Source: Candidatus Hydrogenedentota bacterium
Lineage (GTDB): Bacteria; Hydrogenedentota; Hydrogenedentia; Hydrogenedentales; SLHB01
Direction of reading: 5' to 3'
NCBI GenBank assembly: GCA_029552745.1
Contig: JAKPDK010000184.1
Span: 1 to 64,000, forward strand
DNA length: 64,000 bases
Part shown: piece after piece, positions 1-53,574 of the stretch
Layout of the letters: each line of letters starts with the position of its first letter
Numbering within the stretch: the first letter of the stretch is position 1
Program-made: the position numbers and the translations under genes
The notes under the pieces: generated by a model
What the model was told of the DNA's origin: nothing
Seen by the model: the letters and a program-made list of their open reading frames with translations, nothing else
Databases searched by the model: none

Positions 1-2555
1 GCCACACCGGAGGTGGCTGATAACCCTTTGGGATCCAGCGGTTTTAAATCTGAAGGCACAAAATCCGGCGTTCCATCCCCGTTTAGGTCAGGTCCCCAGA
101 AGGCAACGGTGATCTGCTTCACCACCAACCGCTGATATTGGGCCGTCCGGGGATCGTTCGCACCGCAGAAATTGAACCCCAACAGCGCTGTGGGATACGC
201 GCTCTCTGCGTCAATCCGCTGCACCAGTTTCCTCGCGGCACGCTCGGAAAGGGGCCAATCTTTCTCTTGGGGATAACGTCCTAACGGCAGACGATTCCCA
301 CTAGGATTCGCCGCGTTGTTTCCAAAGGGCCAAGTATCGTACGTGGGACGATTCGGCTGCGGCGGCGGCGTGGTGTACCAGAACGACCGAGGTCCGTAAG
401 GTGGCGTATCAAACCGAGAGTAAAACGGCACCGACTCATACGGCTGTTGAATATTCAGTCCGTCAGGCGCTGTGCCCCATAAACGAACACCGACCGAATA
501 GCCATCATAAAAGGTGTTAGCGCGGTCGTCAAATGCATCCATCCATGCTGGAAAATCTGTCAAATAGTTATAGCCCGACCTGCAAAAAGGTTGATCGTTT
601 GCGCCGTCGTATGCTGGAAAATCTGTCAAATAGTTATAGCCCGACCCCGTCGCAAAGTCGCTGTCGGAATCGTAGGTCAACACAAGGTCATGTACTTCAG
701 CGCCACAACGTACTGCTTTGGTGTTGGTCCAGTTCTGGGAACGTTCGGGCCACCACGGCTCCGTCCACGTGTTGCCGTCCGCCATGTTGTTCCACCGAGT
801 ATCCGCCTCCCAAGGCTGGCGATTTATCAATACATTCTCCAAGGGGATTTGGCAGGTAGCGAGGAGTCCGCCGCGAGCCGGGTTCGCAGGGTCACGTGGC
901 TCGATAAATATCTTGGTATCCGATCCCAACGTGATGCCCGTTCCGTCGCCGGGATCGGTCGAAGAGTCTGCATAGCCGCTGTCGGGACGAATGGTTATAA
1001 AATAATCGGGATAATAGGCATTGGGACCAGGCCACTCTTTATCCCCGTCCGGAGTCGGCTCGATCCGCCCAAAGTCACTTGCTCGCATCTCACTCAACGG
1101 CAATTTAATCCGCCACCAGGGATAAGGCGACTGGGTTTCAGGGGGAAACGGCACCCATTCCCAGAAATAGAGCTCATTGGGATACGCTTCACTAAACTCC
1201 TCCTTGTTAGGAAAGACTGGATCGGGTAAGTCCCTAGGCATTATCACACCCGCAGGCAACGCCGGATGGTCATTGAACGTCACCCCGTTGCCGGCAGCGT
1301 CCGGAGTAGGTCTGTTAAACGCATAGTCATTGTTCGAATCGTTCCACAGCCATAACCCATTGAACGCATGATCGTGGCGGATTGCCCCGTTGGGATCGGG
1401 ACCCTCGCCCGCGCTAGAGGAAACACCAAACGACTGAAAATCCAGCCCTTCGGACGGGTTAAACCCACCGTTACCGGGAAAACCTAGCGGGTCGGCGCCC
1501 TCATCGGTAGCAACCACGCTAACTTCACGAATGATCGGCTGACCGATACGTCTCATCGGCAAACCTTGCTGGGCATTCGGCGCTCCTGTTGCCGCCACCG
1601 CGCCTAACGGGTTGCGTCTTGCCTGAGCCTCTAACCAAGACTGATCGGTGGCGTGGATGTTGATGCCTACGACGGCCGTCCACGTCTCAATAGAAAACAA
1701 CCGGCGCAGCTCCATCCGCTGGTAGGTTACTGGGAACGTCTCGAGCAAATTTCCCTGGTCCCACCGTGGGCGGGCAAATTCCGGCAGCGGGGCATAGAGA
1801 AACGACGTCCAATTCCATGAATTCGTGTACGGTTGAGCCTGTTCCCCATCGAGGGTACCAGTCACATCGTACACCGAAAAACTCGAACTGTATGCCGTAC
1901 CGGGATCGAGAATTTCCGGAGGCGCGCCGTAGAAATTCGGCGAATAGGAGTCCGCCGGCTCCGGCGTGACGTCAGAGTGCATTTTCGCCTCGTGTACTTT
2001 ATAGGCGAACCCTAAGCCACTATGCCACCGTGCACTCGTGCGAAAGGCAACCCGATAAGTTATGTCCACCGGCTCGGGCAAACCAAGACTATCCGCGTTC
2101 GGCACGGGATAGTTATTGGCGTGAAAATTGATGCGATACCGAAGCCCTGTGCGTGTCCCTAACGGCTCGCCTTCGTTGTTCCAGACATACAGGACGCCCC
2201 ACTGAGGCGAATCGTCGGTTCCAAAATTCCGCAACAGGGCAAACTCAAGAAAATGATAATGTTCAGGAGTTTTAACAGGTGCGTAAGGCCTATCTCCCGC
2301 TTTCGGGTCAGGAACGATCTCGTAATCCAAATAATCAAGAACCCGCGGCGCCTTTGTCTCTGTTGTGCTGGAGCCCATCTTAATATCAAACAAGGGCGAC
2401 CAGTTTTGCAGCGGCAAAAGGGCGTGCGTGTCCGGCAAGGCGTCTGTAATGGTAAGTGTTGCGGAGGGCGTCGTTTCCTGTCCAAACGCGTGAAACGCAA
2501 TGCAAAAAACAACTGCCGCTGACCATACGAAAAACCTACGCTGAGAGTTACTCAC
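1..2555 (-). CDS. Large secreted protein of unknown function, 3' end outside window
   Basis: An open frame of 851 codons runs off the left edge without a stop. I place the start at a GTG with GGAGGT eight bases upstream. The N-terminus (SNSQRRFF, then WSAAVVFCIAFHAFGQ) is a Sec signal peptide with likely cleavage after AFG, so the protein is exported. The mature part is rich in Pro, Trp, Tyr, Asn and Asp and has a beta-rich look. It ends in view with a DLNGDGTPDF motif resembling the calcium loops of FG-GAP or dockerin-like repeats. I recognise no catalytic family. The sequence SGYNYLTDFPA occurs twice, 22 residues apart. A TTGACA-17-TATAAA promoter lies about 270 bp upstream. The coding claim is firm; function is unknown. 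Confidence 0.85.
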   Translation of the reverse strand, partial: MSNSQRRFFVWSAAVVFCIAFHAFGQETTPSATLTITDALPDTHALLPLQNWSPLFDIKMGSSTTETKAPRVLDYLDYEIVPDPKAGDRPYAPVKTPEHYHFLEFALLRNFGTDDSPQWGVLYVWNNEGEPLGTRTGLRYRINFHANNYPVPNADSLGLPEPVDITYRVAFRTSARWHSGLGFAYKVHEAKMHSDVTPEPADSYSPNFYGAPPEILDPGTAYSSSFSVYDVTGTLDGEQAQPYTNSWNWTSFLYAPLPEFARPRWDQGNLLETFPVTYQRMELRRLFSIETWTAVVGINIHATDQSWLEAQARRNPLGAVAATGAPNAQQGLPMRRIGQPIIREVSVVATDEGADPLGFPGNGGFNPSEGLDFQSFGVSSSAGEGPDPNGAIRHDHAFNGLWLWNDSNNDYAFNRPTPDAAGNGVTFNDHPALPAGVIMPRDLPDPVFPNKEEFSEAYPNELYFWEWVPFPPETQSPYPWWRIKLPLSEMRASDFGRIEPTPDGDKEWPGPNAYYPDYFITIRPDSGYADSSTDPGDGTGITLGSDTKIFIEPRDPANPARGGLLATCQIPLENVLINRQPWEADTRWNNMADGNTWTEPWWPERSQNWTNTKAVRCGAEVHDLVLTYDSDSDFATGSGYNYLTDFPAYDGANDQPFCRSGYNYLTDFPAWMDAFDDRANTFYDGYSVGVRLWGTAPDGLNIQQPYESVPFYSRFDTPPYGPRSFWYTTPPPQPNRPTYDTWPFGNNAANPSGNRLPLGRYPQEKDWPLSERAARKLVQRIDAESAYPTALLGFNFCGANDPRTAQYQRLVVKQITVAFWGPDLNGDGTPDFVPSDLKPLDPKGLSATSGV
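545..646. repeat. In-frame tandem duplication (two 36-bp copies, 66-nt period)
   Basis: A 36-bp sequence beginning ATGCTGGAAAATCTG occurs at 545-580 and identically at 611-646. The period of 66 nt is exactly 22 codons, so the frame of the secreted protein is preserved and SGYNYLTDFPA is repeated. The 30 nt between the copies are not repeated. Perfect identity suggests a recent event or an assembly collapse or expansion. Confidence 0.9.
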
Positions 2556-2849: not shown

Positions 2850-2950
2850 CAAAGAACCCTCAACCAATTGCCGAGATTACAACAAGTTATGCTATTTTGT
2901 CTAGAAATATCTCGTCCTGTCATCTCACGAAGAACGCTACGCCCCGCCCT

Positions 2951-3082
2951 GTCATTGCGAGGAGTGCCGAAGGGGCGACGCGGCAATCCCCTCAGGAATT
3001 CGGACTTCACCCTATCCTTGGGTTCCCTTGCGCTGTCGAGGGGATTGCTTTGTCGCTTCGAAGACTCGCTCCTCGCAATGAC
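2951..3082. repeat. Dispersed GTCATTGCGAGGAG repeat element, copy A
   Basis: The element opens with GTCATTGCGAGGAG and closes with its inverse, CTCCTCGCAATGAC, giving a 132-bp unit with terminal inverted repeats. Internal blocks GGCAATCCCCTCAGG and GAGGGGATTGCTT are also inverted relative to each other. A second full copy lies at 49462-49603 and a right-hand half copy at 3170-3212. It contains no credible gene. Elements of this type look like MITE or REP sequences and recur across many bacterial genomes; a transposase partner is not in this window. Confidence 0.85.
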
Positions 3083-3130
3083 AATGCACAGGCTATGTGC
3101 GCAAACAGGTTTCTCCAGGCCGCGGAAACG

Positions 3131-3160
3131 GGGTAGGGCGCAACGCATTGCGCCCCTACA
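3131..3160. repeat. GTAGGGCGCAA inverted-repeat element
   Basis: GTAGGGCGCAA and TTGCGCCCCTAC face each other across a CGCA loop, forming an 8-bp perfect stem extended by three pairs after a one-base bulge. This matches a second type of short dispersed palindrome (GTAGGGGCGCAA...). It sits between the full and half copies of the CATTGCGAGG element. Confidence 0.7.
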
Positions 3161-3169
3161 AAAGTCCAC

Positions 3170-3212
3170 GGGATTGCTTCGTCGCTTCGAAGACTCGCTC
3201 CTCGCAATGACA
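3170..3212. repeat. Half copy of the dispersed CATTGCGAGG element
   Basis: GGGATTGCTTCGTCGCTTCG followed by AAGACTCGCTCCTCGCAATGAC repeats the right half of copy A nearly exactly (copy A has TTTGTCG for TTCGTCG). The left half is absent, so this is a truncated copy lying 90 bp from the full one. Confidence 0.8.
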
Positions 3213-3255
3213 ACCGGGGGGACCATGCCCCCAGGGAACTGCGTCCAACGTGGCT

Positions 3256-26343: not shown

Positions 26344-26772
26344 ATGGACACACCAAACGAAGTAGCGGAACAACAACCTGAACAAAAACCTGCAGCGGCA
26401 CCAAGAAAAAGTCCTCTCGCATTTCGGATTATCTTGTATTCCGTGCTGGTGGTAGTAATCGTAGGCGCCGTCCTGTATTGGACGAGGGTGCTTTACTACG
26501 AGCGCGGACTGCGTGAGTACGCCGTGGAACTTATCATCAGAGGAAATCAAGATGACCTATTCCCCATAAAGGAAGGGGAAACCTCTGCCAGCCCAGAGGT
26601 GCAGGTAACGTGTTCGTTTGATCCGTTTTTGATCGGCGAACCTGTCGGGAAAATCCGTCTAACCGTAAGACCAGCGTCTGATTCAAATATAGAGTCAGAT
26701 TACACCATCGCTTACATCTGTTCATACAAGGATGGCGTCTGGAAAGACATAGAAAGCTACCACGAACACTGA
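26344..26772 (+). CDS. Single-pass membrane protein of unknown function
   Basis: The 142-residue protein has a polar, Gln/Glu/Pro-rich N-terminus of about 27 residues, one transmembrane helix (RIILYSVLVVVIVGAVLYW), and a beta-rich C-terminal domain of about 90 residues (VQVTCSFDPFLIGEPVGKIRLTV). An AAGGA site precedes the ATG. It is the last gene of the operon and is followed by a terminator. I do not recognise a family. Confidence 0.78.
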   Translation: MDTPNEVAEQQPEQKPAAAPRKSPLAFRIILYSVLVVVIVGAVLYWTRVLYYERGLREYAVELIIRGNQDDLFPIKEGETSASPEVQVTCSFDPFLIGEPVGKIRLTVRPASDSNIESDYTIAYICSYKDGVWKDIESYHEH

Positions 26773-46109: not shown

Positions 46110-46706
46110 ATGAGACAGTCTACCGTTTTCAATTACTGTGCTACGGCATTCGCTTTGCTTCTTGCAGCAAGCTTCATGGCGGGCTGCGGACAGAAGATCG
46201 GTGAAAAGGTGTCCGAAAAAATCGCTGAAAAGGCAATTGAAAACGAAGCGGCAAAACAAGGACAAAAAGTGGACGTAGATATTTCCTCAGGGAAAATGAC
46301 CGTGAAATCCGACGAAGGTACTGTGGAATACGATGCTGAAAAAGGCACCTCCGTTATGCGTTCGGAAACAGGAGAAACCTTGTTTGCCACCGGGGAAAAG
46401 GCGGAAATACCGGCGGACTTCCCAAAAGATGTACCTGTGTACACCAACATGAAGCCAAACCTCGTAGGACGAGATGAATCAGAAAAGACCATTACAGTCT
46501 CCGCAACGTCCCCCGATCCGTGCGATAAAATCACTGCATTTTACCGAGACGGCATGAAACAGCATGGCTGGACCGAAGAAACTTCTCTCACACAAGACAT
46601 GGGCAAAATGAATCTGTTTACATTTACAAAAGGGGAACGCGAAGCCACGCTGATGATCATGGCAAGCGAAAAAACTTCGGAAATTACGCTCACTGTAAAA
46701 CAATAA
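46110..46706 (+). CDS. Lipoprotein of unknown function
   Basis: The 198-residue protein has a signal with lipobox FMAGC, an amphipathic Glu/Lys helix (KIGEKVSEKIAEKAIENEA), a beta-rich middle, and a C-terminal domain with IPADFPKDVPVY and DKITAFYRDGMKQHGWTEE. That C-terminal arrangement is found in several small bacterial lipoproteins that I cannot name. AAGGGAAA precedes the ATG. It lies 95 bp after the recombinase. Confidence 0.82.
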   Translation: MRQSTVFNYCATAFALLLAASFMAGCGQKIGEKVSEKIAEKAIENEAAKQGQKVDVDISSGKMTVKSDEGTVEYDAEKGTSVMRSETGETLFATGEKAEIPADFPKDVPVYTNMKPNLVGRDESEKTITVSATSPDPCDKITAFYRDGMKQHGWTEETSLTQDMGKMNLFTFTKGEREATLMIMASEKTSEITLTVKQ

Positions 46707-46766
46707 TGACGAAACTTTTTGATTCGACTCGGAATAATAGTTTAAACTTTGGTCAATTGTCCGCTC

Positions 46767-46910
46767 TTGATGGGCCGCGCCCACGCGCGCATCAACGCGA
46801 GGCAACGTGTGTCACAAGCCCGTGACGTTATAGCGTTGGAGAATCCAACGAGCGGTACCCCAAACGGCAACGTTTTCCAAAGTTCTCGAGAGCCAAGGTG
46901 GCTCTTGAAC
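46767..46910 (+). other. Strongly folded intergenic region, candidate structured RNA or 5' leader
   Basis: Five hairpins follow each other with short linkers. H1 pairs TTGATG with CATCAA (46767-46795) around a GC-rich interior. H2 pairs GTCAC with GTGAC (46811-46826). H3 pairs CGTTGGA with TCCAACG (46834-46850). H4 pairs AAACG with CGTTT across a GCAA tetraloop of the GNRA class (46862-46875). H5 pairs GTTC plus AGAGCC with GGCTCT plus GAAC (46882-46910). GCCC in the H2 loop could pair with GGGC in H1. No U-run follows. It ends 36 nt before the next lipoprotein start. It matches no riboswitch or ncRNA class that I know. Confidence 0.5.
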
Positions 46911-46946
46911 ATAATGAAACTTCGATATAAGGAAGGAGAAAACGAA

Positions 46947-47375
46947 ATGAAAAAGATTTTGTCCCTGGTAATGTTCGTATCCCTGATCGTTCTTGCAGGT
47001 TGTGGAGGCCAACAAAAATCTGAGACGCCTGCCCCTGCAGCAGCCCCCACAGAAACCGCTCCCGCTCAAGAAGAAGCCCAGCCTGCTCAACCGGCTGCCG
47101 TAACAGAAACTCCTGAAACAGCGGCAGCCCCTGCAGAAACTCCCGAAACAGCGGCACTAACTGCCGAAACCCTTGTCGGAACCAAATGGCAGGCGGGACC
47201 CTATACCCTCGAGTTTCAAGCGAATGGCGTACTCGTTCTCAATAACGATACCCAAGGGACATGGAGCGTGGAAGGAAATGCCGTGAAAGTCTCCGCGGGC
47301 GACAAGTCTTACACAGCTGAAATCAAAGGCGATAAGCTGTTCTACGGCGGCATGCCGCTGTCCCGACTGAACTAA
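46947..47375 (+). CDS. Small lipoprotein with ETPETAA repeats
   Basis: The 142-residue protein has a lipoprotein signal with lipobox LAGC, then a Pro/Ala/Glu/Thr-rich linker with imperfect repeats (ETPETAAAPAETPETAALTAET is the core, about residues 55-77), and a C-terminal domain of about 60 residues with TKWQAGPYTLEFQANGVL and GTWSVEGNAVKV, similar to META or lipocalin-like small beta domains. AAGGAG lies seven bases before the ATG. The frame stays open further upstream through the folded intergenic region, but no start there is supported. A terminator follows. Confidence 0.88.
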   Translation: MKKILSLVMFVSLIVLAGCGGQQKSETPAPAAAPTETAPAQEEAQPAQPAAVTETPETAAAPAETPETAALTAETLVGTKWQAGPYTLEFQANGVLVLNNDTQGTWSVEGNAVKVSAGDKSYTAEIKGDKLFYGGMPLSRLN

Positions 47376-47396: not shown

Positions 47397-47436
47397 AAGG
47401 GAACCCAACTGCTGGCAGGACGGGTTCCCTTTTTTG
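47397..47436 (+). terminator. Rho-independent terminator
   Basis: AAGGGAACCC and GGGTTCCCTT form a 10-bp stem followed by TTTTT, 21 bp after the lipoprotein stop. The flanking A-run could also permit function on the other strand. Confidence 0.9.
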
Positions 47437-49198: not shown

Positions 49199-49461
49199 GA
49201 ACGTAGACTCCTAACTTACAACACTTCATTATATACCCGCAGACGCTGGATAACAATTATTTGTATAAGTCCAGTACCTTTGGCATTTTTTGTCATGTTC
49301 GATGAGGAATTGAACAGAGGACGTTGCATAAAGGTCATTACAGGAAAGGCACCGACGCATGACATTTCAAAGGTACATTTGAACTACTTACGAACCCCTT
49401 TGACCACTTAAGATTACTTGTTTTTCCGTGTTACGTCCTATTGCGCTATGGCCCACGCTCT
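49199..49461. other. Intergenic stretch without recognised features
   Basis: No gene, convincing promoter or terminator was found in this AT-richer segment between tatA and the dispersed repeat. It contains only short unsupported open frames. Confidence 0.5.
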
Positions 49462-49603
49462 GTCATTGCGAGGAGCCCCGAAGGGGCGACGCGGCAATCC
49501 CCTCAGGTAGTTTGGGAAGTTCGCAACCTTGTGCGTTGCCCTCTTGCGCTACGCGGTTGAGGGGATTGCTTCGTCGCTTCAGGGACTCGCTTCTCGCAAT
49601 GAC
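49462..49603. repeat. Dispersed GTCATTGCGAGGAG repeat element, copy B
   Basis: This 142-bp copy opens with GTCATTGCGAGGAG and ends TTCTCGCAATGAC. The arms GGGGCGACGCGGCAATCC and GGGGATTGCTTCGTCGCTTC match copy A at 2951-3082, while the centre differs in sequence and by about 10 bp in length. Conserved arms with a variable centre are typical of non-autonomous mobile palindromes. The following 185 bp up to the UroD gene hold nothing that I can support. Confidence 0.85.
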
Positions 49604-49788
49604 ACCCGGCTCTACGAGCCTAAGTCTATTGCCTCGCTGCGCTACCAGACGTTTGTAGGCCTATGCATCTGTTCTATGAGTCCTGTACCTCTGATGTTTG
49701 TTCTCAACCAAACGAGAAAGTGAAATTTTTTAAGCGCCAAGAGGGGGTATCTACCTGAAACGACAAAAGGCAACCCCTATCCCACTTA

Positions 49789-53507: not shown

Positions 53508-53535
53508 GAGATAAGTAACTGATGAAGGTCGATAG

Positions 53536-53574
53536 AGGTAAGGTCTGACTCGCGTCAGGCCTTACCTTTTCCCC
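53536..53574 (+). terminator. Rho-independent terminator
   Basis: AGGTAAGGTCTGA and TCAGGCCTTACCT form a 13-bp stem with one G-T pair and a CTCGCG loop, followed by TTTT, 29 bp after the prepilin-like stop. Confidence 0.88.

What the first reader, a model, noticed from the sequence alone, without database searches (positions are those of the whole stretch)
46767..46910. Five consecutive hairpins between two lipoprotein genes: candidate unknown RNA
Stems of 5 to 10 bp follow each other with short linkers over about 145 nt, one with a GCAA (GNRA) tetraloop and one with a 7-bp stem and triloop. A loop-to-stem GCCC/GGGC contact is possible. No U-run makes it a terminator, and no riboswitch or ncRNA class that I know matches. 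It could be a cis-acting leader of the lipoprotein gene or an independent small RNA.
Basis: partly seen in the sequence, partly recalled or inferred. Interest (0 to 1): 0.62.

Follow-up and report, generated by a model that had tools for sequence, protein, structure and literature searches.

The report
Orphan folded RNA between lipoprotein genes
A 165-base stretch between two lipoprotein genes of an uncultured Hydrogenedentota bacterium should fold into an unusually stable multi-hairpin RNA, but it is single-copy, has no detectable relative anywhere searched, and is most simply an untranslated structured spacer or leader of the lipoprotein message.

Summary
The hairpins are real and fold better than chance. 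Positions 46745-46908 (+ strand) form six hairpins: four inside helix P2, a GCAA-capped one beside them, all inside an 8-bp closing helix (P1), and a 9-10-bp hairpin (P8) just outside. Energy is about -67 kcal/mol, z about -3.9 to -4.8. Only two copies of a dispersed palindromic repeat fold clearly better among the window's intergenic tiles. Nothing in Rfam matches. I found no second copy in the genome and no relative by DNA or by a single-sequence covariance model in the 68 genomes held for the phylum, nor in phages, plasmids or viral contigs. The only relative seen with the two lipoprotein genes adjacent in the same order has a 37-nt gap there instead of 240 nt. No terminator lies between the genes and a strong one follows the second, so the element is most likely part of the lipoprotein mRNA. 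My best guess is a lineage-specific, cis-acting intercistronic or leader structure that affects mRNA decay, as in malEF, papBA or ompA. Non-functional, drifting spacer is a serious rival.

The parts
46110..46706 (+). upstream lipoprotein-like gene (198 aa, lipobox LLAASFMAGC), no Pfam family
   Evidence: ORF, Pfam, homologues in 14 other genomes of the family
46745..46752 (+). P1 left arm AACTTTGG, pairs with 46877-46884
   Evidence: MFE and pair probabilities; inverted repeat I2
46759..46766 (+). P2 left arm, pairs with 46850-46858, closes a multiloop of four hairpins
   Evidence: pair probability 0.58-0.82
46768..46794 (+). hairpin P3
46795..46810 (+). hairpin P4 (one G-U pair)
46811..46826 (+). 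hairpin P5, loop holds GCCC
46834..46850 (+). hairpin P6, CGTTGGA-GAA-TCCAACG, 7-bp stem and triloop (outer pair competes with P2)
   Evidence: and sequence
46862..46875 (+). hairpin P7 with GCAA tetraloop
46877..46884 (+). P1 right arm CCAAAGTT
46886..46908 (+). hairpin P8, 9-10 bp with a 3-nt loop, strongest single hairpin (z -4.4)
46930..46949 (+). Shine-Dalgarno-like AAGGAG and ATG of the downstream lipoprotein gene, outside the element
   Evidence: sequence; pairing probabilities
46947..47375 (+). downstream lipoprotein gene (142 aa, lipobox LIVLAGC), no Pfam family
   Evidence: ORF, Pfam, homologues in 18 other genomes of the family
47398..47436 (+). intrinsic terminator after the downstream gene (AAGGGAACCC...GGGTTCCCTTTTTT)

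Best explanation
It is an untranslated, lineage-specific structured region of the mRNA that carries the two lipoprotein genes. It would be intercistronic if transcription comes from upstream, or a 5' leader if a local promoter is used. The likely action is in cis on decay or processing: the compact P1-P7 domain and P8 would block 3'-5' exonucleases after cleavage, or shield the 5' end of the downstream message, so that the two genes are kept at different levels. Shown: position, predicted structure, absence of a terminator between the genes, presence of one after them. Inferred: co-transcription, cleavage, effect on decay.
For: Significant fold on the + strand, the coding strand of both genes; both G-U pairs inside the element (46797/46808, 46888/46906) pair only on the + strand. 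No intrinsic terminator between the genes on the + strand and no U-run after P8; strong terminator after the second gene. The Shine-Dalgarno-like sequence and ATG lie outside the element. Intergenic hairpins that stabilise operon segments are well documented (malE-malF, papB-papA: PMC5927463). Orphan structured intergenic regions without homologues are common in bacterial surveys (PMC8632094).
Against: No homologue, hence no covariation. The only relative seen with the same gene order has 37 nt between the genes and no room for such a structure, and upstream regions of 12 other homologues of the downstream gene show no special folding. No transcript data. The function could be nil.
Confidence: 0.42

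Rival explanations
1. Non-functional, fast-evolving intergenic sequence, perhaps a decayed insertion, that happens to fold well.
For: Single copy, no relatives in the phylum; the comparable spacer in a relative is 37 nt; an 8-bp inverted repeat somewhere in about 310 nt is expected about once by chance (my estimate), and an imperfect flanking direct repeat (46706-46717 / 46911-46922) could be chance or an insertion scar. The genome is rich in other foldable palindromic repeats.
Against: Overall fold z of -3.9 to -4.8 with 0 of 200 shuffles as stable for 46740-46950; most helices are well determined.
Confidence: 0.33
2. Independent trans-acting small RNA made from its own promoter, about 140-165 nt long.
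For: A compact domain closed by P1; an AATAAT box at 46733-46738 would place transcription start near 46745, the first base of P1 (sequence; inference).
Against: No U-run or terminator after P1 or P8; no recognisable -35 box for that AATAAT, and the promoter scan finds no clear excess over shuffles; no homologues.
Confidence: 0.13
3. Ligand-sensing riboswitch or other regulated leader of an undescribed class.
For: Multi-helix junction with a GNRA loop in a 5' untranslated position; GCTCTTGA occurs twice, so TCGAGAGC could pair with either copy.
Against: Riboswitch classes are conserved; none of the other genomes held for the phylum has it. The alternative pairing is about 12 kcal/mol worse and 8-nt repeats are expected by chance here. 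The P1-P8 fold does not cover the Shine-Dalgarno. The downstream gene is an uncharacterised lipoprotein with no metabolic hint.
Confidence: 0.04
4. DNA-level element (cruciform, recombination site or ends of a mobile element).
For: XerD-family recombinase gene ends about 730 bp upstream; 8-bp inverted repeat at the domain ends.
Against: Single copy, no significant target-site duplication, folds better as + strand RNA than as - strand RNA; XerD is a housekeeping gene and the surroundings of its relatives lack the element.
Confidence: 0.04
5. Coding sequence: N-terminal extension of the downstream protein (the frame is open from 46749).
For: 208-aa open frame from 46749.
Against: A good Shine-Dalgarno and a lipoprotein signal peptide start at 46947; the 66-aa extension has no significant relative (E 0.02 at best) and no Pfam match above cut-off.
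Confidence: 0.03

Closest known systems
Intercistronic mRNA-stabilising hairpins (malE-malF, papB-papA, puf)
   Same: Stable RNA structure between co-directional genes in a probable transcription unit
   Different: Here one 165-nt multi-helix domain rather than a single hairpin or REP; processing and decay untested
E. coli ompA-type structured 5' leader (own knowledge)
   Same: Long multi-hairpin untranslated region upstream of a cell-envelope protein gene, with the Shine-Dalgarno left outside the main structure
   Different: No sequence relation; half-life and transcription start unknown
Orphan structured intergenic regions from bacterial IGR surveys (PMC8632094)
   Same: Significant structure in an intergenic region without homologues
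   Different: Found by reading sequence, not by the length/GC sorting used there; the element's G+C (56%) is only slightly above the window's 52%
Dispersed palindromic repeat of this genome (49440-49609 and relatives)
   Same: Intergenic, highly foldable, similar length
   Different: That repeat has dozens of copies; the element is single-copy and does not match it by BLAST or covariance model

Membership tests
Any Rfam 15 family | Covariance-model score at or above the family's gathering score | tested here: not met
   No match in the window; best in 46600-47000 are chance-level, E 1.8 or worse
Structured noncoding RNA class (new) | Two or more homologues with compensatory base changes | tested here: inconclusive
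   No homologue found, so no alignment exists
Intrinsic terminator | GC-rich hairpin followed by a U-run | tested here: not met
   No + strand site in the scan; no U-run after P8
Intercistronic mRNA stabiliser | Stable structure between co-directional genes without a terminator between them | tested here: met
   co-transcription itself is inferred
Intercistronic mRNA stabiliser | Measured RNA end at the structure and different decay of the two segments | not testable with these tools
   Needs RNA-seq or term-seq and half-life measurements
Riboswitch | Conserved aptamer across species | tested here: not met
   Not found in the other genomes held for the phylum
Dispersed palindromic repeat / MITE | Several copies in the genome | tested here: not met
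   Single copy by BLAST and by covariance model

The most novel reading that the evidence does not exclude
A genus-restricted structured RNA (regulatory leader or small RNA) with a P1-closed multi-helix architecture not described before, whose homologues lie in unsequenced or unsearched sister species.
Probability: 0.12. Interest if true: 0.45.

Novelty: new member of a known kind. Interest (0 to 1): 0.2.

Why it matters
If functional, it would be a post-transcriptional control region in a phylum with almost no RNA biology; a search of the held paper library for Hydrogenedentes together with riboswitch found nothing. As it stands it is one orphan folded spacer, a common find in bacterial genomes, and it cannot be raised to an RNA class without relatives.

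Tried and rejected
Rfam at gathering and permissive thresholds. DNA search in the own genome and 59 relatives: only the element itself; other matches are chance-level short or GC-rich words. Single-sequence covariance model R1 against the order, the phylum and the own genome and against 38 loci around homologues of the flanking genes: only the element itself. Protein-guided search of GTDB contigs with the upstream lipoprotein found nothing; with XerD it gave Hydrogenedentota relatives at 58-69% identity whose surroundings lack both the lipoproteins and the element. Phages, plasmids and viral contigs: nothing. An idea that P8 is a conserved pre-Shine-Dalgarno hairpin of this lipoprotein family looked good by eye but failed the shuffle test (mean z -0.3 over the set). 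The flanking direct repeat was considered as an insertion scar, but such a match is expected about twice by chance in this length (my estimate).

Full report
Where it is. The window is the start of a 615-kb contig of a 4.36-Mb draft genome. The best relatives of its XerD-like recombinase are Candidatus Hydrogenedentota MAGs (58-69% identity), so the genome belongs to that phylum; no other genome of its genus was among the relatives searched. The stretch lies in the 240-nt gap between two co-directional lipoprotein-like genes, 46110-46706 and 46947-47375. Neither has a Pfam family. An intrinsic terminator follows the second gene at about 47398-47436. The pattern scan finds no + strand terminator between 46000 and 47600, but it also misses that real one because of its loop-length limit; reading 46707-46946 shows no U-run after any of the hairpins.

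What is there. Folding 46740-46950 gives -72.9 kcal/mol against -56.5 +/- 4.0 for dinucleotide shuffles, z -4.1, 0 of 200 as stable. The fold of 46740-46915 is an 8-bp helix P1 (46745-46752/46877-46884) enclosing helix P2 (46759-46766/46850-46858) with four hairpins inside (P3-P6), a GCAA-capped hairpin P7, and then hairpin P8 (46886-46908). P1, P3, P5, P6 and P8 have pair probabilities mostly above 0.9; P2, P4 and P7 are less certain (about 0.55-0.9). With downstream coding sequence included, P1 loses part of its weight to alternatives.

Is it more than chance. Among 320 tiles of 170 nt the mean z is 0.0 (sd 1.1) and the lowest -3.7, while the optimally placed element window gives -4.8 (its placement was chosen, so the comparison is generous). 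With 500 shuffles, 46745-46908 gives -3.9, the P1-P7 part alone -3.1, and P8 alone -4.4. Among intergenic tiles, the clearly stronger ones are copies of a dispersed palindromic repeat at 2921-3090 and 49440-49609. So the fold is significant but not extreme, and P8 contributes a large share. The + strand folds somewhat better than the - strand, and the element's two G-U pairs work only on the + strand, a weak argument for RNA rather than DNA.

Relatives. Nothing in Rfam. By DNA, the only full match in 60 genomes of the phylum is the element itself. A covariance model built from the one sequence finds only itself in all 68 genomes of the phylum held, and in the own genome. A model from a single sequence, with a loose first filter in those searches, can miss diverged relatives, so this is strong evidence against a close homologue and weak evidence against a distant one. 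Homologues of the downstream lipoprotein exist in 18 other genomes of the family and of the upstream one in 14. In one genome (G005) the two are adjacent in the same order, with a 37-nt gap and no room for the structure. In the others examined, the upstream regions of the downstream gene do not fold unusually and do not match the model. XerD relatives are not followed by these genes. Phages, plasmids and viral contigs gave nothing.

Coding check. The frame is open from 46749 into the lipoprotein, but the 66-residue extension has no significant relative and no family above cut-off, while a Shine-Dalgarno-like AAGGAG and a normal lipoprotein signal peptide begin at 46930-46947. The stretch is most likely untranslated.

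How it probably works. With no terminator between the genes and one after them, the simplest layout is one mRNA in which the element is an intercistronic spacer, or a leader if a promoter lies just upstream. An AATAAT at 46733-46738 would place transcription start at the first base of P1, but its -35 region is poor. Structures of this sort protect upstream segments from 3'-5' exonucleases (malE-malF) or downstream segments after RNase E cleavage (papB-papA), as reviewed and extended in PMC5927463. That is the mechanism I commit to, at moderate confidence, with non-functional spacer close behind. A survey reports that many intergenic regions resembling those of known ncRNAs have no homologues even in close species (PMC8632094), so an orphan like this is not surprising in itself.

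Verdict. The interpretation as an unknown RNA is neither proved nor excluded; its decisive test, compensatory change, has no data. Interest is low to moderate.

Noticed in passing
window 49440-49609, also 2942-3213: Copies of a dispersed palindromic repeat (CATTGCGAGG...CGAAGGGGCGACGCGGCAATCC) with dozens of copies in this genome (70 matches, 248 first-look candidates). They are the best-folding intergenic stretches of the window.
   Followed up: partly
window 26344-26772: A 142-aa protein gene, probably membrane-anchored, with no Pfam family, followed by a terminator-like hairpin; its 3' end is conserved at DNA level in two relatives (77-88%), and the sequence reads as coding, not RNA.
   Followed up: partly
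window about 53534-53569: A 16-bp hairpin just after a pilin-like gene, terminator-like.
   Followed up: no
G003:C140, G006:C55, G020:C768, G024:C892 (L024, L027, L029, L030): Homologues of the two lipoproteins are neighbours in several relatives but in the opposite order, so the pair seems functionally linked although neither has a Pfam family.
   Followed up: partly
window 545-580 and 611-646: An exact 36-nt direct repeat, spaced 66 nt (ATGCTGGAAAATCTGTCAAATAGTTATAGCCCGACC).
   Followed up: no
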